From Anaerobaca lacustris (GTDB lineage: Bacteria; Planctomycetota; Phycisphaerae; Sedimentisphaerales; Anaerobacaceae): DNA of 64,000 nt. A model generated the notes under the pieces. The model worked only from the letters and a program-made list of their open reading frames with translations, was not told the DNA's origin and did no database searches. The position numbers and the translations under genes were made by a program. Shown here piece after piece: positions 8,250 to 33,865 of this stretch (positions are counted from its first letter, which is position 1; every line of letters begins with the position of its first letter). Where the stretch lies: contig NZ_JASCXX010000001.1 of NCBI RefSeq assembly GCF_030012215.1, forward strand, positions 124,001 through 188,000, written 5' to 3'.

Positions 8250-9203
8250 TCAGCGGCGTGCGTCGTTGTCTCGCAGCCAGGCGACGAAGCGGGCCAGACC
8301 GGTGGCGATGTGGGTGGCGGGGTCGTAGCCCAGTTCCCGTTGGGCCTTGGCCACGTCGGCGTAGGTCTGGTCGACGTCGCCGGGCTGGGTGGGCAGGTGG
8401 CTCCTGATCGCCTTCTTGCCGAGGGCCTTCTCGATCTCGGCGACCAGGTCGCGCACGCAGATCGGACGCGACTCACCGAGGTTGTAGATGTTGTAGCCGG
8501 CGCAGCGGTCGATGGCGGCGACGACACCGTTGATGATGTCATCGATATAGGTGAAATCGCGCCGCATGGTGCCGTCGCCAAAGACGGGGATCGGCTCACC
8601 GGCGTCGATCAGGCGGGCAAACTTATGGATGGCCAGATCGGGACGCTGGCGAGGGCCGTAGACGGTGAAGAAGCGCAGGCAGGTCATGCCGATATCGTAG
8701 AGATGGTGGTATGTGTGGCAGATCAGCTCGCCCGCCTTCTTCGTCGCGGCGTATGGCGAGATCGGGAAATCGACGTTGTCGCTCTCGGAGAAGGGGACCT
8801 TCTTGTTGTTGCCGTAGACGCTCGAACTCGAGGCGAAGACGAACTTCTTGATTCGTCGCGCGCGGGCGATCTCCAGCAGGACGACCGTCCCGTTGATGTT
8901 GACATCGCTGTAGAGGGCGGGCTGTTCGATCGACGGGCGCACGCCCGCCCGCGCCGCAAGGTGCACGATGGCGTCGATATCGTCGCCGATGGCCCGCTCC
9001 ATCGCCGCCTGGTCGCGGATGTCCGCTTCGACAAGATGAAAGTTGGGATTGCGGAGGGCCGGTGCGATATTGCGCCGTTTGATCTGCGGGTTGTAGAACG
9101 TATCGAAACTGTCGATGCCGACAACTGTGTGACCTGTTTCGAGCAGACGCTCGGTCAAGTGCGATCCGATGAATCCTGCTGCGCCGGTGATGACTGCTTT
9201 CAT
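8250..9203 (-). CDS. UDP-glucuronate 4-epimerase-like NAD-dependent sugar epimerase
   Basis: A 317-residue extended short-chain dehydrogenase. The NAD-binding GAAGFIG motif is at residues 7-13, the catalytic serine region at 125-128 (ASSSSVYG) and the YxxxK pair at Tyr151/Lys155. The YGPRQRPDLAI segment near residue 178 is characteristic of UDP-glucuronate 4-epimerases, which turn UDP-glucuronate into UDP-galacturonate for surface polysaccharides. It is the last gene of a minus-strand set with glucuronokinase and galU, which would supply its substrate. Other UDP-sugar epimerase specificities cannot be excluded from sequence alone. Confidence 0.88.
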   Translation of the reverse strand: MKAVITGAAGFIGSHLTERLLETGHTVVGIDSFDTFYNPQIKRRNIAPALRNPNFHLVEADIRDQAAMERAIGDDIDAIVHLAARAGVRPSIEQPALYSDVNINGTVVLLEIARARRIKKFVFASSSSVYGNNKKVPFSESDNVDFPISPYAATKKAGELICHTYHHLYDIGMTCLRFFTVYGPRQRPDLAIHKFARLIDAGEPIPVFGDGTMRRDFTYIDDIINGVVAAIDRCAGYNIYNLGESRPICVRDLVAEIEKALGKKAIRSHLPTQPGDVDQTYADVAKAQRELGYDPATHIATGLARFVAWLRDNDARR

Positions 9204-22434: not shown

Positions 22435-23430
22435 ATGACGGACATGCATCAGCAGGCCCTTACGCTGATCGAGAATGCCAGTGATATCTTGATTACCACG
22501 CACACCCGGCCCGACGGCGATGCGTGCGGGTGCGTCGCCGCACTGACCGAGGCCCTGCGAGGGCTGGGCAAGACCGTGCGGCCGTTGTTCCTCTCGCCGG
22601 TGCCTTCCTGGTACGCTTTTCTCTTCGACGAGCCGGTGCCCGTTCTGCGAACGGACGTGCAGGTCGAGGAGCTGGCGCAGAGCCCGTTCGGACGATGCGA
22701 CCTGATTCTCATCGTCGATACCAACAGCTATAGCCAGTTGCCCCATTTCGAGGAGCACCTCAAGCGGATCGACACGCCGATCCTGGTGATTGACCATCAT
22801 GTCACCAGTGATGGGCTGGGCACCGTCGAGATCGTCGATCCGACCGCCGCCGCGGCCGGCCTCGTGGTGTACGATTTCTTCCGGGCCGCCGGCCTGCCCA
22901 TCACGGCAAAGATGGCCGAGGCCCTCTTCGTCGCGATCGCCACCGACACCGGATGGTTCCAGTTCAACAACACCACCAGCCGGGTGTACCGCTGCGCCGC
23001 GGACCTGATCGACTTGGGCATTTCCCCGACCGACCTGTACGACCGCCTCCACCACACATACTCGCAGGCGCGGTTCCGGCTCCTGGTGACCATGCTCGAC
23101 CGGCTCGAACTGCACCTCGACGGACGCTACGCCGTACAGTACCTGCTTCAGGAAGACTTCGTGCAGACCGGCGCCGTCTATGAGGACACCGAGAACTTCA
23201 TCAACGAATGCCATCGTATTGCTTCGGTTGTGGTTTCGACGCTGCTTGTGGAACTCAAGGACGGCCGCATCCGCTGCTCGCTGCGCAGCCGAGGGGCCGT
23301 CGACGTCAGCGAGATCGCTGCCCGGTTCGGCGGCGGAGGCCACAAGATGGCCGCCGGCACCTTCCTGCCCGGTCCCATCGATCACGCCAGGCAACTCATC
23401 TTCCACGAAGTCACCCAGCGCCTCCCCTGA
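22435..23430 (+). CDS. DHH-family phosphoesterase, NrnA-like (nanoRNase / pAp phosphatase)
   Basis: A 331-residue DHH-DHHA1 protein. Metal-binding motifs are in order: THTRPDGDACG (about 22-32), LILIVDTNSY, the DHH motif VIDHHVTS, and the DHHA1 motif GGGGHKMAAG near residue 302. NrnA enzymes degrade two- to five-nucleotide RNAs and dephosphorylate pAp. Length and motif spacing fit NrnA well. It follows the ribF pair by 66 bases, probably in the same transcript, where in other bacteria such genes sit next to translation functions. Confidence 0.9.
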   Translation: MTDMHQQALTLIENASDILITTHTRPDGDACGCVAALTEALRGLGKTVRPLFLSPVPSWYAFLFDEPVPVLRTDVQVEELAQSPFGRCDLILIVDTNSYSQLPHFEEHLKRIDTPILVIDHHVTSDGLGTVEIVDPTAAAAGLVVYDFFRAAGLPITAKMAEALFVAIATDTGWFQFNNTTSRVYRCAADLIDLGISPTDLYDRLHHTYSQARFRLLVTMLDRLELHLDGRYAVQYLLQEDFVQTGAVYEDTENFINECHRIASVVVSTLLVELKDGRIRCSLRSRGAVDVSEIAARFGGGGHKMAAGTFLPGPIDHARQLIFHEVTQRLP

Positions 23431-23525
23431 TCCTCGTCGGATCGGGATGGTAGTGGCGATGAAGTTCGAGCCACGAATTTCTGCGTCCTGCTTTCTTGCG
23501 ACTTTCTTCTCCGGCCGGTTCTTGG

Positions 23526-23531
23526 TACAAT
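23526..23531 (+). promoter_or_regulatory. Probable -10 box of the first tandem pseudopilin gene
   Basis: A TACAAT hexamer lies 61 bases before the pseudopilin ATG. A weak -35 (TTTCTT) sits 17 bases upstream. The surrounding sequence, CTTTCTTCTCC...GGTACAAT, resembles the better promoters before the next pseudopilin (24493-24521) and the reverse transcriptase (25787-25815). The three are likely copies of one ancestral promoter. Confidence 0.45.
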
Positions 23532-23592
23532 CAGATAGAACGGCTCGGGGTTTTGGGGCCGCCTTTCGGCCACGCTCTGAAGGGGCATTGTG

Positions 23593-24381
23593 ATGCGAAG
23601 AGGTCGAGGCTTCACACTGATCGAGCTTCTGGTGGTGGTGGCGATCATCTCGGTGCTGATGGCAATTCTGATGCCCAGCCTTCAGCGCGTCAGAAAACAG
23701 GCCCGCTCGGTGGCCTGCCGATCCAGCCTCAAGCAATGGGGTCTGATCTGGTACTTCTACACCGAAGACACCGACGGCAAGTTCAACCCGGGCATCCACC
23801 AGGGCACTGCGGCGGCCAATGACTGGCCCGTTGCGCTGCTGCCCTATTACCGGGACAAGGGCAAACTGGCCATGTGTCCTTCGGCCACGCTGCCGGGGGC
23901 GGTCGGCGGAGCGTTCGAACACCGCGCCTGGAACTGGGACGGAGCCGGCTGGGGCGACGTCCGAGCGAAAGACCCCGAACTCCGCGACCGCGGCAGCTAC
24001 GGTCAGAACGAGTGGATCTGCAGTCGTGCCGAGGACGACTACTGGAAAACGGTCCGTCGCATCAAGCACCCCGACAACGTCCCTCTGTTCTTCGATTGCG
24101 CCTATGTCGACGCGTGGCCGCTGCATAACCAGGGCGCGCCGGCGATCAAGGGCTTCGATGTCGCCGACGGAAACGAATGGAATGTCGTCTGCATCGATCG
24201 TCATTCGGGTACGATCAATTGTGTCTTCGCCGACTTCAGCACGGTTCGCCCCGTGGGGCTCAAAGAGCTGTGGACTCTGAAATGGCACCGCCAGTTCAAC
24301 ACCGCCGGGCCCTGGACGATGGCCGGAGGTGTCCAGGCCGGCGACTGGCCCGGCTGGATGAGGACCTTCAAGGACTACTGA
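23593..24381 (+). CDS. Pseudopilin, paralogue 1 of a tandem pair
   Basis: A 262-residue pseudopilin. ATG 23593 has GAAGGGG eight bases upstream; the GTG immediately before it is an alternative. The leader is very short (MRRGRG) and ends in Gly before [17 protein letters not shown], an ideal prepilin peptidase site. The exposed domain contains CRSSLKQWGLIWYFYTEDTDGKF, CPSATLPGAV and a conserved C-terminus ([19 protein letters not shown], then TMAGGVQAGDWPGWM). That C-terminus recurs in the next gene at 24765, showing the two arose by duplication. It is expected to be membrane-inserted and to build a secretion pseudopilus or surface fibre. Confidence 0.88.
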   Translation: MRRGRGFTLIELLVVVAIISVLMAILMPSLQRVRKQARSVACRSSLKQWGLIWYFYTEDTDGKFNPGIHQGTAAANDWPVALLPYYRDKGKLAMCPSATLPGAVGGAFEHRAWNWDGAGWGDVRAKDPELRDRGSYGQNEWICSRAEDDYWKTVRRIKHPDNVPLFFDCAYVDAWPLHNQGAPAIKGFDVADGNEWNVVCIDRHSGTINCVFADFSTVRPVGLKELWTLKWHRQFNTAGPWTMAGGVQAGDWPGWMRTFKDY

Positions 24382-24492
24382 CCTGCCATGCTGCCGGCCA
24401 CGCAACCATCCGTCGCCCGCCTCTGCGGCCCCGTGCGCCGCCTGTCGTGCCGGTTGCAGCAGGACTCGAAATACGCGTCCCTGTGATTTTCC

Positions 24493-24764
24493 TTGTCCGC
24501 CCGGAGGGGTTATGCCATAATAGGATGAGAAGATTGGGCGCCTTTGGGCCAACCTGCGTCGAGGACCTCGACATCGAGACCCACCATCCTCGACGAGGGC
24601 GTGATGGAGGCGCCTCCGGCCGCCTATCCTGAGAGGGCCACGAGCCTATGGCCGTACGATACCACGAAATCGCGAGAATGAGACGAGACAAGGAGACAAT
24701 AGGCGCCTGTTTCCTGGGGCCTTTGCGACCATACGATTGTGCAATGTTTGCAGGAGTGCGTGCA
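24493..24764 (+). promoter_or_regulatory. Promoter and ~270-base leader of the second pseudopilin (leader copy A)
   Basis: TTGTCC (24493-24498) and CATAAT (24516-24521) form a promoter with a 17-base spacer. The leader then shows landmarks: TGCGTCGAGGACC near 24560, CCATCCTCGACG near 24590, TGAGAGGGCCACGAGCCTATG near 24630 and the self-complementary AGGCGCCT near 24699. The same landmarks, in the same order, precede the reverse transcriptase (25787-26031). A leader this long before a simple gene suggests an RNA-level function, or simply a duplicated segment. The earlier part, 24382-24492, shows nothing recognisable. Confidence 0.55.
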
Positions 24765-25574
24765 ATGAGAAGGTCCAAGGCGTTTACGTTGATCGAGCTG
24801 CTCGTCGTCATTGCCATTATCGCGCTGCTCATGTCCATTCTGATGCCGGCGCTGGCGCGGGTCAGAGAGCAGGCCCGAACCGTGTCCTGTCGGGCGAACC
24901 TGAGGCAGTGGAACCTCTTCTTCTCGATGTACACCGAGGCGCACGACGGCAAGTTCCAGGCCGGCGTCGGCAGTGGGCACACCTATCACTGGATGAACAC
25001 TCTGCGCCCGTACTACCAGAACGATCACAAAATCCGCTGCTGCCCCACGGCCTTGAAACCGATCGTCGACGAGCACGGCAACACCGCCCCCGTCTGGAAC
25101 GTCTTTTCCGCCTGGGGCCGGTTCTGGGGCGAGGGATACGCGCCCGAGGGCGACTGGGGCAGCTATGGCATCAACGGCTGGGTCGAGAACCCGCCGGCCG
25201 ACTACGCCACGGTGTACGAGAACTTCGACACCAGGAACAACTGGCGGACGCCCGGCGTCCGAGGGGCCGCCTACGTGCCTCTGTTCATGGACGCCCTGCG
25301 ATTCAATATCTTCCCGTTGCCCACCGACAATCCGCCGGAGGTCCCCGACATGGCGTGGCAGGGCACCCAGCACATGCGGCGTATCTGCATCGACCGGCAC
25401 AACGGCGGCAGCAATATGGCGTTTCTCGACTGGTCCGTGCGCAAGGTGGACCTGAAGGAACTCTGGACGCTCAAGTGGCACAAGACCTATGATACCGCCG
25501 GCCCGTGGACTATGGCCGGCGGGGTCAGCCCCAGCGACTGGCCCGATTGGATGAGCCGCTACCGCGACTTCTGA
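24765..25574 (+). CDS. Pseudopilin, paralogue 2 of a tandem pair
   Basis: A 269-residue pseudopilin. ATG 24765 is chosen because CAGGAG lies eight bases upstream and it gives a normal leader (MRRSKA before [17 protein letters not shown]); the frame is open further upstream, but only through leader DNA. The exposed part aligns with its neighbour: [23 protein letters not shown], a CCP motif, and the near-identical ending [19 protein letters not shown] then [15 protein letters not shown]. The residue before Phe is Ala, not Gly, so processing may differ from the first copy. It is probably a subunit of the same pseudopilus. Confidence 0.88.
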
Positions 25575-25786
25575 GCGAGGCGGTCGATGCGGAAGAGCGC
25601 AAAAGCGTAGATGCGCGAGGTGCCCGCCATCTAAAGGGATAGCCGCCTCCAACCCATCTACCCATATACGCTTCCACGCTCCCACATCCCCAGAGCGACC
25701 AGCGACGAGACCCTCCAGCCTCCCGCCTCCAGCCTGTTATCTCCCGAGATACGAGATACGAAACACGAGATACGGCCGTTTTCTTC
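25575..25786. other. Non-coding stretch with short direct repeats
   Basis: No gene is supported here. The notable content is three copies of CGAGATACG at 25745-25753, 25752-25760 and 25766-25774, next to a CCTCCAGCCTCCCGCCTCCAG purine-poor run. Such short tandem repeats could be part of a genome-wide intergenic repeat family, or the edge of an inserted segment, because the leader copy and reverse transcriptase begin immediately after it. Confidence 0.5.
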
Positions 25787-26031
25787 TTGCCCCCGCGCCC
25801 CCATTTCGCCACAATACGGCAAATCCGAACCAGCCGGACGTGCGGCCCGGCGTGCGTCGAGGACCAGACCACCAAAACCGCCCATCCTCAACGCCCCCGT
25901 CCCCCACGCATCCGTGTCGGGCTTGCTTGAGAGGGCCAAGAGACCATGCGAAACCACAAACCCGCGACAACGCAGCGAGACACACGAAGACAGGTGCCTG
26001 TCTCTGCCGGTGTCTCTGAGACTGGTGTGCC
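25787..26031 (+). promoter_or_regulatory. Promoter and leader of the reverse transcriptase (leader copy B)
   Basis: TTGCCC (25787-25792) and CACAAT (25810-25815) give a promoter with the same 17-base spacing as leader copy A. Shared landmarks follow: GTGCGTCGAGGACC near 25855, CCCATCCTCAACG near 25884, and TTGAGAGGGCCAAGAGACCATG near 25930. Near the end lies a perfect hairpin, GACAGG-TG-CCTGTC (25989-26002). No strong ribosome site precedes the reverse transcriptase ATG. A non-coding RNA such as those that template some defence reverse transcriptases could be encoded here; that is speculation. Confidence 0.5.
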
Positions 26032-27570
26032 ATGACGCTTCAACCCGAATCAATTGACTGGGCAATCGACTTCGTCCAGGCGCATTCGGATGGCGATCTG
26101 TTCCCAAAGATCCTTGAAGTGGCGGCGATTGCTGACGACAAGCGGAAGTTTGTGTCGCAGATTGCTGGGACCACGCTCGGCGAGTTTGCACCTGGAAGCT
26201 GTCGTCGGTTTATTGTCCCCAAAGACGAAATGTCGTACCGCCAGGCCACGCAACTCGATCCTCAGGATTCGATCATTCTCTCCGCGCTTGTGTACCAGTA
26301 TGGGCTCCAGATCGAATCTCAACGACTGCCGGCTACACGAGTGTTCAGCTACCGCTTTGGGCCTACGCTGCCAGATGGTTTGTACAGCGGCAAGCCCGCC
26401 TGGAATGACTTTTGGAAAGCCGCTGCGGCACATGCACAGCATTCAACGCACATTCTATACTGTGACATCGCCGATTTCTATAACCAAGTCTACCATCACA
26501 CGGTGGAGAACCAGTTGATCGCTGCTGCACTTCCAAATCAAGCCATCAAGTGGATTGTTGCACTCTTGGGATCAACGACTGCAGGAGTGTCAAGAGGTGT
26601 TCCGGTCGGCCCGCACGCGATTCACTTGATTGCTGAATCGACACTAATCCCAATTGATAACAGCCTTCAAGGTGCTGGACTGAAGTTCATTCGATATGCC
26701 GATGACATATTGGTGTTCTGCAGATCAGATCGCAAAGCCAAGTCGGCACTGGCGACAGTTGCCAGCGTGCTCGACAAACAGCAGCGATTGACGCTTCAGC
26801 GCTACAAGACGAAGATCTACGACCCCGCTGAGTTTCGCAATCTCTGTGGTCAAATGATCGAAGATCGTCCAATCAATGCGGATGAAGAAGCTCTGGTGGA
26901 CCTTATTAAGAAATACTCTGGGGGCGACCCGTACAAGATCATCTCGTATGCGCAAGTATCGCAAGCTGATTGGGCGGCAATATCTCCAGATTCCATCCGA
27001 CGAGTCATTGAGGAATATATCAACACACAGGCGGTTGACTACGTCAGACTCCGTTGGTTCTACAGGCGGCTGGCACAGATTGGTCATCCGGGAGCCATTG
27101 AAGTCTCCCTTGAATACATCGAAAGGCTTGGTCCATGTTTTGCAAACATATGCTTCTATCTTGCGTCTGTGCAGTCAGTGCCCATAAGAGAATGGAAGCG
27201 CATCGGATCGGCGCTCCTTCGACTCCTGCGCATGCCAGAAGTCGAGGCGAACGAGTACTTTCGACTCTTAATACTCAGCCTATTTACACGAAATAGCGAT
27301 CTAAACCACTTCACAAGACTGCGTAATTTGTTCCAGCAGGCTGATCCCTTCATCCGCCGTGAGGTCATCCTCGCCGCGAAGATCAATGGTGCGTTGGATT
27401 GGATACGAGAACTCAAAGAGGACTATCCTTCTATGGACCCTTGGCAGCAGAGAGCCATGCTCTTCGCACTGTCTGGTTTGGGCAAAGATGAGAAGAGTCA
27501 CTTCATCAGGCGTCAGTCTGTTCTTCGCCCATTCGATAAGGTACTCGCCAAATGGGCCAAGAGCATCTGA
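26032..27570 (+). CDS. Solitary reverse transcriptase of the Abi/UG (DRT) type with helical C-terminal domain
   Basis: A 512-residue protein with a complete reverse transcriptase core. Motif A is ILYCDIADFYNQV (catalytic Asp145), motif B is SRGVPVGPHAIHLIAES (187-203), and motif C is the YADD box at 222-225 in FIRYADDILVFC. A KTKIYD thumb segment follows. Residues ~330-505 are predicted helical repeats with a closing DPWQQRAMLFALSGLGKDE segment, as in abortive-infection and DRT reverse transcriptases rather than retrons, group II introns or DGR enzymes. No maturase or endonuclease domain is seen. GC is visibly lower than in neighbours, suggesting transfer. Anti-phage defence is inferred. Confidence 0.85.
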   Translation: MTLQPESIDWAIDFVQAHSDGDLFPKILEVAAIADDKRKFVSQIAGTTLGEFAPGSCRRFIVPKDEMSYRQATQLDPQDSIILSALVYQYGLQIESQRLPATRVFSYRFGPTLPDGLYSGKPAWNDFWKAAAAHAQHSTHILYCDIADFYNQVYHHTVENQLIAAALPNQAIKWIVALLGSTTAGVSRGVPVGPHAIHLIAESTLIPIDNSLQGAGLKFIRYADDILVFCRSDRKAKSALATVASVLDKQQRLTLQRYKTKIYDPAEFRNLCGQMIEDRPINADEEALVDLIKKYSGGDPYKIISYAQVSQADWAAISPDSIRRVIEEYINTQAVDYVRLRWFYRRLAQIGHPGAIEVSLEYIERLGPCFANICFYLASVQSVPIREWKRIGSALLRLLRMPEVEANEYFRLLILSLFTRNSDLNHFTRLRNLFQQADPFIRREVILAAKINGALDWIRELKEDYPSMDPWQQRAMLFALSGLGKDEKSHFIRRQSVLRPFDKVLAKWAKSI

Positions 27571-27833
27571 CTCTGCCATCGAACAACATTGCGGTGGGCG
27601 GGTGGCAGCCTCAAGTCCGCAGGACTTGTAATAGCGGGACGGCCCCCAGTACCTGGGTCTGTCCACGGTAGTTTGGCGGGCTCACCTGGACCGTTTCGTG
27701 TGCGACGGTAGACTTGGTGGGGCCTGTGAGGTGGGGGAGTGCGAGCGGATGTGAGTGGGTGCGGCGGGTGTGGCCGATGCCGCGCCGCCGTTCGTATGGG
27801 CATCGCAGGCGTGTTTGCAGAAGGGTGGAGATC
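27571..27833. other. Non-coding stretch after the reverse transcriptase
   Basis: No gene is supported. A small perfect hairpin AAGTCC-GCA-GGACTT occupies 27613-27627, 43 bases after the stop, without a U-run. The remainder is GC-rich and G-heavy (GGTGGGGCCTGTGAGGTGGG), unlike the low-GC reverse transcriptase, so the foreign segment probably ends close to the stop codon. Confidence 0.45.
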
Positions 27834-28601
27834 ATGTTCCTGGTCAAATCGTTCGCGACACCGCTTGGGTGGGTTCTGGTGCTCTTGCTTGTGGGCCTGG
27901 TCCTGATGAAATGCTCGCGGAGAGAGGCCGCACCGAAGGTCGGCTGGGCTCTGGTGTTGCTCGGCACGCTGCTGCTGCTGGTCTTCAGCTTTCCGCCGTT
28001 CGCCAACGCCCTGATCTACTCGCTGGAGTCCCGCGTTCCCGTGCCCGATCCCGACATTCTTTCGACGCTCGATGTGATCGTCGTATTGGGTGGCGGCGCG
28101 TTCCCGTCCGGCGGGTTGCGCGGCGATGCGGATCTGTCCGGTCGGTCGTATCCACGCCTGTACCATGGCGTGCGTCTCTTTCAGCAGAGCGGCGCCGCCG
28201 TCATCGCCTTCTGCGGGGGCAAGATCATTGAGAGCAAGGAGAGCGAGGCGGAGATCATGAAGGCCATGTCCGTGCAGATGGGCGTCCCGGCTGAGCGGAT
28301 CCTCATGGAGACGACATCGACGAGCACGCATGAGAACGCCAAGGGCCTGGCCGCGTTGCTGCCGGCCGAGTCGGAGCGGCGCATTGGGGTGGTCACTTCG
28401 GCGACGCACGCGATGCGCGCGGCGCAGATCTTTGCCGGGCACTTCCCCGGCGACGTGATCGTTCCGGTCCCGGTCCACTACCAGCATGACGCGTATCTCT
28501 GGCGCATCGAGAATCTCCGGCCCACCGTCGGAGCGTTCGAAAGATCCACGGCCGCCCTTCACGAATGGATCGGTCTGCTCTGGCACCGCCTCCGCCACTG
28601 A
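27834..28601 (+). CDS. YdcF-like (DUF218) membrane protein
   Basis: A 255-residue protein starting at ATG 27834, preceded by AAGGGTGGAG. Two N-terminal hydrophobic helices (LGWVLVLLLVGLVLM; ALVLLGTLLLLVF) are followed by a DUF218 domain from ~75: DVIVVLGGG, TSTSTHENAKG and VVTSATHAMRAAQIF are the family blocks. In Escherichia coli, ElyC/SanA/YdcF relatives act in envelope maintenance and lipid-carrier metabolism. The exact reaction is not established. It faces the convergent oxidoreductase gene and has no obvious link to the defence genes around it. Confidence 0.88.
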   Translation: MFLVKSFATPLGWVLVLLLVGLVLMKCSRREAAPKVGWALVLLGTLLLLVFSFPPFANALIYSLESRVPVPDPDILSTLDVIVVLGGGAFPSGGLRGDADLSGRSYPRLYHGVRLFQQSGAAVIAFCGGKIIESKESEAEIMKAMSVQMGVPAERILMETTSTSTHENAKGLAALLPAESERRIGVVTSATHAMRAAQIFAGHFPGDVIVPVPVHYQHDAYLWRIENLRPTVGAFERSTAALHEWIGLLWHRLRH

Positions 28602-28669
28602 GGTCCTCTGGCGGTCGGTATTGGCGGTCGCAGGTATGCCAGCGACAGCCATCGCACAGGCCGGCGCTT

Positions 28670-30010
28670 CTATAACACCGTAGTCTGGCCGGGGAGGGCG
28701 ATGGGATAGCGGCCCTGGGCGTCGGGGACGACGGGCGGGGGCGAGTCCATCGTGTAGCCGTCGAGGCCGGGGGCGAGTTCGAGGTTCGACGACATTGCCT
28801 GGTCCCAGGTGATCATCTGGCCGGACTCGGCGGCCATACGGCCGAGGATGCCCACCATTGCGGCGTTGCACGAGCGCTGCGTCTCGTTGTACCGCTTGTT
28901 CGTGCGGATCGCGTCGAACAGCAGATCGTGCTCGACCTGATACTGGTCGCTACGCCCGCCGACGTACTGCCAGATCACGTCTTCGGGCCGCTGGCGGTGG
29001 CCCTTGAAGATGCGGGGCTGGCTGATGCCCTCGCCGAGGACAGCCGAGCCGGTGGCGCCGTGGATGATGTCGCCGAAGAAGCCCCAGCAGTTGTCCATGT
29101 GCCGGCCTTGGGCGAACAGTCGCGTTCCGTCGGGGAAGTGGTACTCGACCGCATAGTGGTCGAAGAGCTGGTCGGGCGCGGTCCGCACCTGGCGGCCGCC
29201 CTGGCCCTGGGCCGAGACGGGCCACGCGTCCTTGCACCAGCAGCAGACGTCGAGGTTGTGGATCAGCCAGTCGAGCAGGAAGCTGCCGTTGAGCCATGTG
29301 AAGTTGGAGTAGTTGCGGATCTGGTGGGCCATCTCGGTCATACCGGGCGACTTGGGCGTGAAGCCGACCGGGCCGTGCTCGCGATAGGCCCAGCAGGTGA
29401 TCAGCTCGCCGATGAGCCCTTTGTGGAGTTGCTCGACCGCCTCTTCGAGCGGCCTGTAGTGCCGGCTCATCAGGCCGCCGGCGACCTTGAGGTTCTTCTT
29501 CTCGGCCTCCTGGCCCGCCTTGAGCACGCGGCGGATGCCGGGGGCGTCGACCGCGAACGATTTCTCCATGAACACGTGGCAGCCTTTGGCCACGGCGTAT
29601 TCGACGTGCAGCGGGCGAAATGCCGGCGGGGTGGCCAGCAGCACCACACCGCCGGGGGCGACGGCGTCGATGGCCTTCCTGTAGCCGTCGAGCCCGCCGA
29701 ACTGCCGGCCGGCCGGGACATTGACCTTCTCGCCGAACTGCGTCGAGAGATTCTTGAGGCTGTTCTTCAGGTGGCTGTCGAAGACGTCGGCCATCGCGAC
29801 CAGACGCGTCGGGCCCTGGGTGGACAGCGCGTTGGCCGCCGCCCCGGTGCCGCGTCCGCCGCAGCCGACCAGGGCGACCTGGATCACGTTCTGCTCGCCT
29901 GCGTAGGCCCGCACCCCGATCGCGCCGGCTAATGCCGCACCGGCCAGGGCCCCGGAGGTCTGCTTGAGGAAGTCACGACGGCTGGTGGACGGCTCGCTCT
30001 GCACGCTCAT
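28670..30010 (-). CDS. Tat-exported Gfo/Idh/MocA-family oxidoreductase
   Basis: A 446-residue protein. The N-terminus has a twin-arginine signal (TSRRDFLKQTSGALAGAALAGA). The Rossmann motif VALVGCGGRGTG lies at about 46-57 and the family EK motif (HVFMEKSFAVD) near residue 147. The C-terminal substrate domain is rich in Trp and His (WLIHNLDVCCWCKDAWP). Such exported enzymes are greatly expanded in planctomycetes and are thought to oxidise or isomerise sugars using NAD(P) bound in the cytoplasm before export. It is closest in layout to the copy at 48124-49485. The substrate is unknown. Confidence 0.9.
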   Translation of the reverse strand: MSVQSEPSTSRRDFLKQTSGALAGAALAGAIGVRAYAGEQNVIQVALVGCGGRGTGAAANALSTQGPTRLVAMADVFDSHLKNSLKNLSTQFGEKVNVPAGRQFGGLDGYRKAIDAVAPGGVVLLATPPAFRPLHVEYAVAKGCHVFMEKSFAVDAPGIRRVLKAGQEAEKKNLKVAGGLMSRHYRPLEEAVEQLHKGLIGELITCWAYREHGPVGFTPKSPGMTEMAHQIRNYSNFTWLNGSFLLDWLIHNLDVCCWCKDAWPVSAQGQGGRQVRTAPDQLFDHYAVEYHFPDGTRLFAQGRHMDNCWGFFGDIIHGATGSAVLGEGISQPRIFKGHRQRPEDVIWQYVGGRSDQYQVEHDLLFDAIRTNKRYNETQRSCNAAMVGILGRMAAESGQMITWDQAMSSNLELAPGLDGYTMDSPPPVVPDAQGRYPIALPGQTTVL

Positions 30011-30145
30011 ACAACGCCCCTTTCCTGGTTGGCTGGTCAGACAGTCACACGCCGCAGGCCCGATACGCCCGCACCGCCATTATCCCCCCCGCACGCCTTC
30101 CACGCAACCACCATTCTCCACCGCGCAGTGCGCCCGATGGTCCTG

Positions 30146-30724
30146 TCACGCAAAGACAGCTCGGACGCGGGTGGAAAACGGTCCGAAACCTAACGGACAG
30201 CGCTGCGACAGGATTCCGAGATCGACTTGGTCCGTGATCCCGGCGTACATCTCGCTCTGAGCCATATCGTTGGGACTGTCTTCGAGCAATGCTGCGCAGT
30301 CCTCTTTGGGCTGGTGAATCGTCTCGGGATCGGGTCGCCGGTTGACCTCATAACCCAGGACGCTCGTCAGCGCACTCTCGTCGGCCAGCATCCACGCGTC
30401 GAACGTTCTGACAGCCACGCCCATGGCGCGTCGCAGGTGTGACTGCGTCGTATCTTGTGCCGTGGTGATCTGCGTCAGTCTTTCGCGCTGGCCATCTTCG
30501 TCGACGAGCAATATCAGCACGTCAACGCCTCTTCTCTCGGCCTCCAGAAGCCAGCGCACAGCCCGTTTGAAGTAACCGTCTCCTCTGCCGTGATATGCGT
30601 GAATCCTGCTGTTGGATATCTTGTCCTGCTCGTATGTTGCCTCGCCTCCCCCAAGCCTTCTCACGAGACTCTCCAGCGCCCCGGATTGCTCGTGCTTTCC
30701 CTCCGACACGATCAGGACCTTCAT
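30146..30724 (-). CDS. TOPRIM-like (DUF4276-type) protein, partner of the AAA ATPase
   Basis: A 192-residue protein overlapping the ATPase gene by four bases. The N-terminus VLIVSEGKHE (Glu8) and the later ILLVDEDGQRERL (Asp75-Glu76-Asp77) form the separated E and DxD acidic pattern of TOPRIM nuclease folds, as in DUF4276/DUF4435 proteins. A conserved-looking FDAWMLADE follows near residue 108. TOPRIM partners of ABC-type ATPases act as nucleases in OLD-like and PARIS-like defence systems. The fold call comes from motifs only, and nuclease activity is inferred. Confidence 0.7.
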   Translation of the reverse strand: MKVLIVSEGKHEQSGALESLVRRLGGGEATYEQDKISNSRIHAYHGRGDGYFKRAVRWLLEAERRGVDVLILLVDEDGQRERLTQITTAQDTTQSHLRRAMGVAVRTFDAWMLADESALTSVLGYEVNRRPDPETIHQPKEDCAALLEDSPNDMAQSEMYAGITDQVDLGILSQRCPLGFGPFSTRVRAVFA

Positions 30725-31902
30725 TCGGGACTGCCCTCCACCGGTTCCGTGGTGTTGGCGATGGTTTCGTCCTCTTCAGCGGTCCAGATCTCGCCCAGCG
30801 TAAAGACGTCGATCTGCTTGCGGACCGTGGGGCTCTCGCTCAGGCGAGTGGTCTTCACCTCGCCATTGTCGAGCTTGGTGCAGAGCGTGACCTCTTCCGG
30901 CTCGAACAAATCCACCACATACGGCGAATGCGTCGTCAGCAGAACCTGCGTGTGCGACTGCTCGCTGATCAACTCGCGCAGAATCGTCAAGACGTCCCGC
31001 AGCCGCTTCGGATGAATCCCGTTCTCCGGCTCCTCCACCAGCAACACCCTCGGCGGCTTCGGAAGATAGAGGACCGTCAGATACGCCAGCACCAGCAATG
31101 TCCCATCCGACGCCTGCGACGCCGGGATCAATTGGTGGCCGCTGTGAAGCCGGAAATAGAGCCCCTTCCCATCCGCCTTTTCCAGCATCGTCACCTGCTC
31201 CGGGGCATCCACCGGAGGCCGGTAAGACGACTCCTGCTGAAGAACGATCGAATGAATGTGAGGAAAGACGTCCGTGAAACGCTTCTCCAACTTGACGAAC
31301 TGCTCCCGGCTGTAGCTTAGAATCTCGTCCAGGCACAGCGCCAGACCGAAGCCGTTCGATTCCATCCGAAAGCTTCTCTTGGTATCGGGCGCCACAGGCA
31401 AGGCCAGGAATCTTGGCTCCCATCGGTACAAATGCACCCCGCCCAACAGACCCCTGAGAAGGCTACTGATGTCATCCGGCACGCGCAGGAACACGTCTGG
31501 GCAATCCACAGGCCAAAACTCTTCATTTTCCTGTACGGCTTCAACAAGAGAGTCGTAGTCTTTGTCGCGTGTCCGCACAATCTTTCTGTTAGGCGCAGCC
31601 AGTCTACGGCCCTGCGCGAAACCAACGCTGATCGTGTAGCCAGCGATTACCTCATGGTCGAGATTCGCCTCAATCACGACAGATGCGCAGGGTTCTCCGG
31701 CCCAAACCAGTTCTCTGTCCTTCCACGATCCAAGGAAGGCCGGGGACAGGTTGTGATCGACGCTGCGACATAGGGCGGCGAGGGCGTCGAGGATGCTGGT
31801 CTTGCCCGAGTCGTTGGGCCCGATCAGCACGTGGATCGGCGTCAGGTCGATCTCGACGTCGCGCAGTGCCTTGAAGTTCTGGATTCTCAGCTTCGTAATC
31901 AT
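30721..31902 (-). CDS. AAA/ABC-type ATPase of the OLD/RecF-like (AAA_21) family
   Basis: A 393-residue SMC-like ATPase without the long coiled coil of SMC proteins. Walker A is GPNDSGKTS (28-36) after the typical LRIQNFKALRDVEIDL opening. The ABC signature position is QASDGTLLVLAYL near 263-275. Walker B is VLLVEEPENGIHP (286-298), followed by LLTTHSPYVVDLF, the switch histidine region. This set matches OLD, AriA and PtuA-type defence ATPases. Translational coupling to a small TOPRIM-like gene makes a two-component toxin-like or nuclease system likely. A housekeeping role is less likely, given the location in an accessory stretch with the reverse transcriptase. Confidence 0.88.
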   Translation of the reverse strand: MITKLRIQNFKALRDVEIDLTPIHVLIGPNDSGKTSILDALAALCRSVDHNLSPAFLGSWKDRELVWAGEPCASVVIEANLDHEVIAGYTISVGFAQGRRLAAPNRKIVRTRDKDYDSLVEAVQENEEFWPVDCPDVFLRVPDDISSLLRGLLGGVHLYRWEPRFLALPVAPDTKRSFRMESNGFGLALCLDEILSYSREQFVKLEKRFTDVFPHIHSIVLQQESSYRPPVDAPEQVTMLEKADGKGLYFRLHSGHQLIPASQASDGTLLVLAYLTVLYLPKPPRVLLVEEPENGIHPKRLRDVLTILRELISEQSHTQVLLTTHSPYVVDLFEPEEVTLCTKLDNGEVKTTRLSESPTVRKQIDVFTLGEIWTAEEDETIANTTEPVEGSPE

Positions 31903-32059: not shown

Positions 32060-33304
32060 TCAATCGATCCGGGGCGGGGCGGCTGCGCTCAGGTCCGGGT
32101 CGGCGGTTGTCCACGGTTTGATCCGGGCGAAGACGCCGTAGCCGGAGCCGTCCTGGCCGTCGCTCTGCCAGACGGCGACGAGCAGGTCGCCGGCGGCGCG
32201 GGCGATATCGGGCAATTGTTGCTTGCCCGCCACGTAGCCGTTGAGCTGGAACTGGTCGCCCGCCGGCGAGCCCGCCGCGTCGAAGCGCCGGGCCCAGACG
32301 TCGGTCGCCAGATTCGGATCGCCGTGGTCGTGCTGCCAGACAACGACGAACGCGTTCGCATCGTCGATCGCAACCCGCGGCCATTGCTGGGCGCCGTCGC
32401 GCAGTGAGTTGACGGTGAACTGGCCGGTTCGCGGCACACCGTTCGGATCGAAGCAACGCGCGTGGATGTCGTCGTCGCCGGCCCGGTTCGGATCGCCGTC
32501 CCAGACGATGACGAAGTCGCCCGACGGACTCATCGCCACCGCCGGCCAGGTGACCGAGCCGAAGTCGACCTCATTGACCTCAAACGGCTCGCCCAGTGCG
32601 ACGCCGTTCGCATCGAACCGCCGAGCCATCACTGCATTGGTCGTTCGGTCCTGGAGCCATGTCACCACGAAGCGACCGGCGGCATCCATCGCGACACTTG
32701 GATAGCGGGCGTCGTAGAGCCCCCCGTCGATGCGAATCTCCTGGCCCAGCGGCGTGGCGTCGGCGTCGAACAACTGGCCCCGGATGGACGTGATCTTGCC
32801 GGACGGGTTGGTCTGTCGGCTCTCCCAGACGACGGCGAATGTCCCGGTCTCGCTGCCGGCCACGCTCGGATAGAGTTGTTGGCCTTCCGTGTCCGCGTTG
32901 ACGAGGAACTCGTCGGTCAGCGCGGCGCCGAATTGGTGGAACAGGCGGGCGAAGATGTCTTCGGCGTCGAGTCCCGGTCCGTGCCAGGCGACGAGAAGAG
33001 TGCCGGCGCCGTTCGTGGCGGCGGCCGGCTCGGTCTGGTTGCCGTCGCGCACCGTGTTGACCTGGACCTCGTCGGAATCGAGGGATCGCCCCGTCGTGTC
33101 GAAGCGGCGGACGAAGATGTCATTGGAGCGGCCCGCGCTGCTGAAGTAGCTGCTCCAGACGATGGCAATGCGGCCGTCGGCGTCGGCGGCAACCGCCGCA
33201 TTGGCCTGCGCGCCGCTCGTCCGCCCGTTGACCTGGAACTCCTCGGCGCGGAGCCACAGGGGGATACACAGAACGATGGCGCAAACAACAATGGTCTTTC
33301 TCAT
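32060..33304 (-). CDS. Secreted repeat protein, probable beta-propeller
   Basis: A 414-residue secreted protein, starting at ATG 33304; an upstream extension would add unlikely sequence. A signal peptide (MRKTIVVCAIVLCIPLWLRA) precedes about seven repeats of ~55-60 residues. Each repeat carries a "VAMDAAGRFVVTW" or "AVAADADGRIAIVW" strand, a "IFVRRFD...G" strand and a "FQVN" opening strand. The pattern predicts a beta-propeller. No catalytic motif or anchoring domain is visible. It is probably an extracellular or periplasmic binding protein. The function is unknown. Confidence 0.78.
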   Translation of the reverse strand: MRKTIVVCAIVLCIPLWLRAEEFQVNGRTSGAQANAAVAADADGRIAIVWSSYFSSAGRSNDIFVRRFDTTGRSLDSDEVQVNTVRDGNQTEPAAATNGAGTLLVAWHGPGLDAEDIFARLFHQFGAALTDEFLVNADTEGQQLYPSVAGSETGTFAVVWESRQTNPSGKITSIRGQLFDADATPLGQEIRIDGGLYDARYPSVAMDAAGRFVVTWLQDRTTNAVMARRFDANGVALGEPFEVNEVDFGSVTWPAVAMSPSGDFVIVWDGDPNRAGDDDIHARCFDPNGVPRTGQFTVNSLRDGAQQWPRVAIDDANAFVVVWQHDHGDPNLATDVWARRFDAAGSPAGDQFQLNGYVAGKQQLPDIARAAGDLLVAVWQSDGQDGSGYGVFARIKPWTTADPDLSAAAPPRID

Positions 33305-33865
33305 GGGTTGTTCCCTCCTCACTTTGTGTGTACGAATCGGTCCCGCGCACGCGCAGCGGACCTGTGCGTTCCGCTTCAATCGCCCGGAGCGTTCCGACCG
33401 AGGCATCGTCTCGCGGCACCATCAGTCATTTGCCCGGACGCGCTGTTGATCTCCATCTCGCATGGATCGGGCGCTTCCTGTCGCTCCACCGGTCCATTGT
33501 ACGAAATCGCTGGCCGTTGTCCACAAAAAAGTGCAGCGAGTTCAGAGATTGGTGGTCCGGGCGTTCCGGCGGCGTGGGTGTGCAAAGCAGAGGACGGGCG
33601 GCAGCCTCATCGCGATCCCGATGGCCATCAGGACCGAGAGGGGGATGGTTGGATCGTGACCCACTCATCGGGGCTTACAGCGGCGACAGGTCCACCATTC
33701 CCCAACCTATCGCAATGGAAGTCGCGACAGGCGTGAGGCTGCCACTCGCACGAGTTCCGGTGTGCGCGTGCGGGGCTCACAGCATGGACGCAGGGGCTAT
33801 GTGCCGGCCGAGACGTCCGGGCAGGGCAGGTTCATTGTCCGGCTTGGCGTGGCGCTAAGCCCCGG
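33305..33865. other. Intergenic region without a recognisable gene
   Basis: About 560 bases with no convincing coding sequence on either strand: the open frames are arginine-rich shadows without ribosome sites or recognisable motifs. The segment near 33500-33560 is less GC-rich (TTGTCCACAAAAAAGTGCAG) and could hold a promoter or a small RNA, but I see no defined element. Confidence 0.45.

What the first reader, a model, noticed from the sequence alone, without database searches (positions are those of the whole stretch)
25787..27570. Solitary Abi/UG-type reverse transcriptase placed behind a copy of a pseudopilin leader
Seen: a complete RT core (YADD, PVGPHA motif B) with a helical C-terminal domain and no intron, retron or DGR partners, at lower GC than its neighbours. 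Its ~245-base leader repeats the landmarks of the leader before the adjacent pseudopilin (TGCGTCGAGGACC, CCATCCTC-ACG, TGAGAGGGCCA-GAG-C-ATG) in the same order and at the same promoter spacing. Known: Abi and DRT reverse transcriptases defend against phage, some using a neighbouring non-coding RNA. Inference: the RT either replaced a third pseudopilin or captured its leader, and the leader may supply the RNA the enzyme uses.
Basis: partly seen in the sequence, partly recalled or inferred. Interest (0 to 1): 0.8.

Follow-up and report, generated by a model that had tools for sequence, protein, structure and literature searches.

The report
Foreign antiviral reverse transcriptase behind shared promoter
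A bacterial anti-phage enzyme gene (a DRT8-type reverse transcriptase) that came from distant bacteria sits exactly behind a promoter-leader sequence that this bacterial genus carries in many copies, and in sister species the same spot holds other, different foreign genes, so the leader marks a gene-exchange site rather than supplying an RNA part for the enzyme.

Summary
The ORF at 26032-27570 is a full-length match to PADLOC Drt8 (E 5e-157), with an intact catalytic triad and a helical C-terminal domain. Its predicted fold is closest to DRT6, Abi-P2, DRT4/UG15, AbiA and AbiK, which are single-gene Class 1 UG/Abi RTs. Relatives 65-76% identical lie in Rhodanobacter, Piscinibacter, Limnobacter, Geothrix and Citrobacter; DNA homology stops at the ORF ends, so no conserved flanking ncRNA exists.

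The leader belongs to a dispersed promoter-leader family with about 20 copies in four sister species, standing before pilins, a KAP NTPase, a DNA methyltransferase, AbiGi-TIR, VapBC, an SDH protease, a DUF3800 protein and a TPR protein. At orthologous sites flanks and leader are conserved while cargo differs. At the RT's own site: DRT8 here, AbiGi-TIR, SDH protease and secreted proteins in three sisters. DNA after the leader is GC-poor (57.7% versus 63.9% before it).

Best reading: a horizontally acquired, single-gene DRT8 expressed from a resident leader that marks hypervariable exchange sites. "The leader is the RT's RNA" is not supported. How cargo is exchanged is open.

The parts
26032..27570 (+). 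Drt8-family (UG/Abi, Class 1-like) reverse transcriptase, 512 aa, single-gene foreign cargo
   Evidence: PADLOC Drt8 E 5.4e-157 over residues 3-511; 65-76% identity to proteins of other phyla; GC 51.5%
26416..26832 (+). RT core (RVT_1, residues 129-267) with catalytic D145 and RYADD 221-225 (nt 26692-26706)
   Evidence: catalytic aspartates invariant in seven homologues
26878..27567 (+). all-helical HEAT-like C-terminal domain (residues 283-512)
   Evidence: AlphaFold2 model, mean pLDDT 72; best folds DRT6, Abi-P2, UG15/DRT4, AbiA, AbiK
25774..25984 (+). core of the promoter-leader element (long subtype); similarity trails on to about 26005
   Evidence: 88% to G002:C242, 85% to G003:C71, 91% over the first 77 bases to G001:C29; model R1 hits; four-species alignment
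25787..25792 (+). -35-like hexamer TTGCCC, conserved across the leader family
25810..25815 (+). -10-like hexamer CACAAT, 17 bases from the -35
25866..25930 (+). stretch between direct repeats of GAGGACCA that is present in long-subtype leaders (RT, SDH, AbiGi, pilin) and absent from the short subtype
25637..25773 (+). resident intergenic repeat tract upstream of the leader, shared with the orthologous site in sister species
   Evidence: 74% over 25637-25982 to G003:C71
24493..24720 (+). divergent member of the same leader family, in front of pilin2
   Evidence: alignment score 51 against shuffles at most 34
24771..25574 (+). pseudopilin 2 (N_methyl); closest orthologues lie at other places in sister genomes
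23590..24381 (+). pseudopilin 1 (N_methyl)
22435..23430 (+). NrnA-like DHH/DHHA1 gene, the last gene collinear with sister species before the variable region
27604..27628 (+). resident hairpin repeat GGCAGCCTCAAGTCCGCAGGACTTG, 34 bases after the RT stop, about 19 copies in this genome (up to 3 mismatches)
28670..30010 (-). GFO/IDH/MocA gene whose 3' end is the shared downstream flank of the variable site
   Evidence: 93% over 28683-30096 to G001:C29, downstream of the orthologous leader

Best explanation
The RT is a horizontally acquired, stand-alone DRT8 of the Class 1 UG/Abi kind. It lies as an almost bare ORF behind a resident promoter-leader element. SHOWN: family and fold; ORF-limited homology to other phyla; the leader is a dispersed family confined to a few sister species; at orthologous sites the leader and flanks stay while the cargo behind it changes; cargo DNA is GC-poor. 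INFERRED: the leader's conserved sigma-70-like promoter drives the RT. On phage infection the enzyme, probably an oligomer, makes DNA without an RNA template, possibly protein-primed, as AbiK, Abi-P2 and DRT4 do, and this DNA arrests phage or cell. INFERRED, weaker: cargo is swapped by homologous recombination between dispersed leader copies and shared downstream flanks.
For: Drt8 full-length match, E 5.4e-157; next family E 6.7e-42. Fold neighbours DRT6 (TM 0.62/0.64), Abi-P2, DRT4/UG15, AbiA, AbiK. Relatives 67-76% identical in Pseudomonadota and Acidobacteriota; present in only 4 of 161 genomes of the order and none of the five other genomes of the genus. Pairwise DNA homology is confined to the ORF among seven loci. 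GC falls from 64.5% to 51.5% and returns to 64.6% at the ORF edges. Leader copies precede a KAP NTPase, DNA methyltransferase, AbiGi plus TIR, VapBC, SDH protease, DUF3800, TPR and pilins. Four-species site: this leader is 85-91% identical to those of G001:C29, G002:C242 and G003:C71, whose cargo is secreted proteins, SDH protease and AbiGi-TIR, with the MocA 3' end as shared downstream flank. Four further sites share flanks with different cargo. GC after the leader is below GC before it in 18 of 20 copies, Wilcoxon p 2e-5; 14 of 16, p 3e-4, without this site.
Against: No expression or phage data. DRT8's mechanism is described as not established (PMC13213688, PMC13314766), so the Class 1 mechanism is by analogy. 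The AlphaFold model is of moderate confidence (7 sequences, pLDDT 72). At some sites (G000:C11, G002:C97, G003:C51) the gene facing the leader lies on the opposite strand, so the leader is not always a cargo promoter. No single-base junction is shared by all cargoes, and recombination was inferred from synteny in draft assemblies. The G003 and G002 sites are split over contigs.
Confidence: 0.7

Rival explanations
1. The leader is the RT's own ncRNA cofactor (as in DRT2, DRT3, DRT9, DRT10), captured from a pilin gene.
For: It lies directly upstream, about 210 nt from the predicted start of transcription to the ATG; some DRTs use neighbouring ncRNAs.
Against: The leader precedes non-RT genes in the same and sister genomes. 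The RT's relatives in other phyla lack it, and nothing outside the ORF is conserved. No fold above shuffles (z 0.39, 0.49), and one compensatory pair of 21 in short-subtype copies. The fold is Class 1, not Class 2.
Confidence: 0.05
2. The leader is a mobile promoter that was inserted in front of genes already present (promoter propagation), so the leader is the newcomer and the RT came first.
For: Dispersed copies with conserved -35/-10 stand before unrelated genes; leader-pilin units occur at different sites in different species.
Against: At orthologous sites the leader and its upstream flank are the conserved part and the downstream gene differs. Leader GC is host-like while cargo GC is foreign. 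No repeats shared by the two ends were found.
Confidence: 0.12
3. The leader is part of an active cassette-exchange system with its own enzyme (integron-like: promoter plus insertion point), not ordinary recombination.
For: One-sided, directional drop of GC behind the leader; near-bare ORF cargo; two leaders 1.5 kb apart in G002:C420.
Against: No shared junction base, no conserved 3' site and no recombinase seen next to this copy (no genome-wide search); some cargo is in reverse orientation.
Confidence: 0.12
4. The RT is a relic or a housekeeping enzyme without a defence role, maintained by chance behind a strong promoter.
For: No experiment exists; draft-genome data only.
Against: ORF, catalytic triad and C-terminal domain are intact; the family is in a defence library; a homologue lies in an integrase-bearing element at tRNA-Sec in E. 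coli, near a retron effector gene.
Confidence: 0.1

Closest known systems
DRT8 (Drt8) defence reverse transcriptase
   Same: Full-length profile match, same length and intact catalytic motifs; the RTs of Rhodanobacter, Piscinibacter, Limnobacter, Geothrix and Citrobacter are 67-76% identical.
   Different: A partner protein with SLOG and PNP domains (Cap17) is listed for some DRT8 systems (PMC10952713); none was found among the neighbours tested here, nor annotated next to the E. coli or Rhizobium homologues.
DRT6, DRT4/UG15, Abi-P2, AbiK, AbiA (Class 1 UG/Abi RTs)
   Same: Best fold matches; RT core plus helical repeat C-terminal domain; single gene.
   Different: Sequence identity only 11-16%; DNA product, priming residue and oligomeric state of DRT8 unknown.
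Chromosomal defence hotspots (Pseudomonas core defence hotspots PMC10250203; E. coli defence islands PMC10121019; P2/P4 satellite hotspots PMC9122126)
   Same: Fixed flanks with different defence genes in related genomes.
   Different: Here the constant edge is a repeated promoter-leader with many copies per genome, one cargo of one or a few genes each, rather than a unique pair of core genes or a phage satellite.
Mobile promoters / promoter propagation (concept from own knowledge)
   Same: Near-identical promoters dispersed before unrelated genes.
   Different: At orthologous sites the promoter stays and the gene changes.
Integron promoter plus attI site (own knowledge)
   Same: A promoter followed by exchangeable genes.
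   Different: No attC-like 3' site, no shared junction and no integrase found nearby; copies are dispersed.

Membership tests
DRT8 | full-length match to the Drt8 protein family | tested here: met
   PADLOC PDLC03783, residues 3-511, profile 2-491 of 493, E 5.4e-157
DRT8 | active RT core (catalytic aspartates) | tested here: met
   D145, D224, D225 invariant in seven homologues
DRT8 | SLOG-PNP (Cap17) partner reported for some DRT8 loci | tested here: not met
   no PNP or SLOG domain among eight flanking proteins at 21.1-31.9 kb. Not shown to be required, so it does not exclude membership
DRT8 | protection against phage | not testable with these tools
   needs an experiment
UG/Abi Class 1 | helical HEAT-like repeat domain after the RT core | tested here: met
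   helices H283-296 to H500-511 in the model; best folds DRT6, Abi-P2, UG15/DRT4, AbiA, AbiK
UG/Abi Class 1 | template-independent, protein-primed DNA synthesis | not testable with these tools
   inferred from the class (PMC13174585, PMC12632851)
Class 2 DRT with cis ncRNA (DRT2/3/9/10) | conserved ncRNA beside the RT gene | tested here: not met
   no DNA conservation within 1.5 kb outside the ORF among seven loci
Retron | retron RT family and msr-msd RNA beside the gene | tested here: not met
   retron_St85 42.5 bits against a cut-off of 235; no Rfam match; no conserved flank
Group II intron | maturase family and intron RNA | tested here: not met
   57.3 bits against a cut-off of 300; no Rfam intron match
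DGR | template and variable repeats near the RT | tested here: not met
   self-comparison of 23420-28700 with the window finds only pseudopilin-type matches
Integron | integrase gene and attC sites | tested here: inconclusive
   no conserved 3' element and no shared junction; genome-wide integrase search not done

The most novel reading that the evidence does not exclude
The dispersed leader family is the fixed half of a cassette-exchange system specific to this planctomycete-type lineage: each copy is a promoter plus landing edge where one or a few foreign genes, defence genes prominent among them, are swapped in and out, by recombination between copies or by a dedicated enzyme, giving each species a different immune repertoire behind the same promoters.
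Probability: 0.2. Interest if true: 0.8.

Novelty: new variant of a known kind. Interest (0 to 1): 0.5.

Why it matters
The RT is one more natural DRT8, a class whose mechanism is reported as not established, and its bare, ncRNA-free transfer between phyla argues that DRT8 works from the protein alone. The wider point is the leader: a repeated promoter that stays in place while the gene behind it changes from species to species would be a simple way for a genome to try out foreign defence genes under a ready promoter, and would give a handle for finding unknown defence genes in these genomes by searching for the leader.

Tried and rejected
1) ncRNA role of the leader: flank comparison of seven RT loci, folding against shuffles, covariation: all negative. 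2) The hairpin after the RT as a 3' cassette end: it is a repeat of about 4-45 copies per genome in this genus and does not go with leader copies. 3) Terminal repeats around the RT: none of 11 bases or more between 25601-26031 and 27571-27900. 4) RT on phages: no match in the phage collection or viral contigs; on plasmids only Rhizobium at 56%. 5) Tree test for a planctomycete clade of the RTs: p-AU 0.35, not decisive; the transfer claim rests on identity (76% to Rhodanobacter, 65% to the nearest planctomycete), GC and patchy occurrence. 6) Leader of pilin2 as an old pilin-specific leader: its closest orthologues in sister genomes do not carry it in alignable form. 8) The original DRT6-9 survey (gkac467) is not held in the library.

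Full report
Observation. The ORF at 26032-27570 encodes 512 aa with an RVT_1 core at residues 129-267. Catalytic D145 and the RYADD aspartates D224 and D225 are invariant in seven homologues. Its GC is 51.5%, while its leader (64.5%), its 3' flank (64.6%) and the window (62.5%) are alike. The leader resemblance to pilin2 is homology, not chance: local score 51 against a maximum of 34 in 2000 dinucleotide-preserving shuffles and 30 at the best unrelated place in the window. Both have hexamers 17 bases apart.

What the RT is. The best PADLOC family is Drt8, E 5.4e-157 over the full length; the next, RT_UG21, is at 6.7e-42. NCBIfam models for Drt4, Drt5, Drt3a, retrons and group II introns match only the core, far under their cut-offs. 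Rfam finds no intron or other RNA near it. AlphaFold2 on seven sequences (pLDDT 72, pTM 0.66) gives an RT core followed by a run of helices from residue 283 to the end. Foldseek's best hits in the PDB are DRT6 (TM 0.62/0.64), Abi-P2, UG15/DRT4, AbiA and AbiK, ahead of DRT9 and retrons. These are the single-gene Class 1 UG/Abi RTs. Papers describe Class 1 as carrying helical repeat domains and making DNA without a nucleic-acid template, in some cases protein-primed, and Class 2 as ncRNA-templated (PMC13174585; PMC12632851). Two 2026 papers state that DRT8's mechanism is not established (PMC13314766; PMC13213688).

Where it came from. Proteins 65-76% identical occur in Rhodanobacter, Piscinibacter, Limnobacter, Geothrix, Citrobacter and one planctomycete MAG. 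In the window's order only 4 of 161 genomes have a homologue at E 1e-30, and none of the five other genomes of the genus. In E. coli the Citrobacter-type gene lies in an integrase-bearing element at tRNA-Sec, near a retron effector gene; in Rhizobium it is on a conjugative plasmid. Between any two of seven loci DNA homology is confined to the ORF, from ATG to stop codon even for the pair with 80% identity, and nothing within 1.5 kb on either side is shared. So the transferred unit is the bare ORF, and no neighbouring RNA is conserved. The tree does not resolve the planctomycete rows; the transfer claim rests on identity, GC and patchy occurrence.

What the leader is. Searching with the RT leader found copies in three sister species at 85-91% identity and weaker copies elsewhere in the same genome, but no strong copy in the other two genomes of the genus or in the rest of the sampled order. 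A sequence model (R1) lists about 20 copies in four genomes. All share TTGCCC-N17-GACAAT-like hexamers and the block GCGCCCCGGCGTGC-CGAGGACC, followed by GAGACGTGCGAAACCGAAAACCCGCGACAACGCGACGAGACA. A long subtype (RT, SDH, AbiGi and pilin copies) has about 65 more bases between two direct repeats of GAGGACCA. Genes behind the copies include a KAP NTPase (PifA/QatA-like), an N6/N4 DNA methyltransferase, AbiGi followed by a TIR protein, VapBC, an SDH-type protease, DUF3800, a TPR protein, three pseudopilins and unknowns. The pilin2 leader in the window is a divergent member. There is no support for an RNA structure: z-scores 0.24 to 0.49 for the RT and KAP leaders and -1.05 for the pilin2 leader; one compensatory pair of 21 among short copies.

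Leader sites are exchange sites. The RT leader and the tract before it (from 25637) are orthologous to an intergenic region behind a DUF3795 gene (name from own knowledge of the family) in G001:C29, G002:C242 and G003:C71. Behind it lie three secreted proteins in G001, an SDH protease in G002, AbiGi-TIR in G003 and DRT8 here. The downstream flank, the 3' end of a MocA-type gene, is shared: 93% to G001 over 1.4 kb; G002 and G003 link through an O-methyltransferase-like segment to the same MocA end. In this genome the old upstream flank now sits before another leader copy (G000:C8:6734, 80% over 1.1 kb), while the RT leader is joined to NrnA-pilin1-pilin2; DUF3795 is absent. This is a rearrangement whose breakpoint coincides with leader copies. 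Other sites repeat the pattern: TPR against VapBC behind an upstream flank 81% identical over 1.9 kb; KAP against a 275-aa protein before a shared downstream flank; pilin against DUF3800 before the same xseA-like flank (94% over 5 kb); three different fillings at the G000:C11 / G002:C97 / G003:C51 site. The 900 bases after the leader average 57.7% GC against 63.9% before it, lower in 18 of 20 copies (Wilcoxon p 2e-5; without this site 14 of 16, p 3e-4). In the four-species alignment resident sequence runs to about 26005 and resumes by 27604, so the foreign part is little more than the ORF.

How it most likely works. Shown: enzyme family, fold class, ORF-only transfer, dispersed resident leader, changing cargo behind fixed leaders. 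Inferred: the leader's promoter drives the RT; the RT acts alone, synthesising DNA without an RNA template on phage infection; cargo is exchanged by homologous recombination between leader copies and shared flanks. A dedicated exchange enzyme is not excluded, but no shared junction, 3' site or end repeats were found. At a few sites the facing gene lies on the opposite strand, so the leader is better described as the edge of a variable site than as a promoter for every cargo.

Novelty. The RT is a new member of DRT8. The leader-marked exchange sites resemble known defence hotspots (PMC10250203, PMC10121019, PMC9122126) but differ in that the constant edge is itself a repeated promoter-leader. 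I found no description of this element in the searches made.

Noticed in passing
window 30146-31902: DUF4276 gene plus AAA_21 ATPase, matching the PADLOC candidate system HEC-01 (B and A). In sister genome G003 the MocA-type gene and the gene at 32060-33406 are adjacent without it, so it looks like a second defence insertion beside the RT.
   Followed up: partly
window 27604-27628: Hairpin repeat GGCAGCCTCAAGTCCGCAGGACTTG with 4-45 copies per genome in the genus at up to 3 mismatches; arm changes are often matched on both sides (AAGTCC/GGACTT, AAGCCC/GGGCTT, AACTCC/GGAGTT), as for a maintained palindrome.
   Followed up: partly
window 25644-25775: Intergenic tracts of imperfect repeats (CGAGATACGAGATACGAAACACGAGATACG; ACGCTTCCACGCTCCCAC) that recur upstream of other leader copies in this genome.
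   Followed up: partly
L224 (G001:C29), 162-bp repeat of the MocA 3' end, copies about 1.2 kb apart: In sister genome G001 the last 162 bp of the MocA-type gene are duplicated directly, bracketing an inserted segment; in G002 the contig breaks at the same place. It looks like integration by a single crossover at that gene end.
   Followed up: partly
G000:C68:496-1158 and G000:C38:31209-31856 (L001, L002): Two further reverse transcriptase genes in the same genome, both with stronger RVT_1 matches than the DRT8; not classified.
   Followed up: no
G002:C420:7392-7519 and 8868-8998 (L197): Two leader copies about 1.5 kb apart on one strand with a DUF3800 gene between them, an array-like arrangement.
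   Followed up: no
G083:C10:43022-44557 and G038:C526:7339-8877 (L010, L011): Two more distant RTs of this kind (42% and 26% identity) in the same family of bacteria, not checked for a leader of their own.
   Followed up: no
whole genome G000: Many pseudopilin-like paralogues (22 matches at E 1e-20 to pilin2 in this genome, more in others).
   Followed up: no
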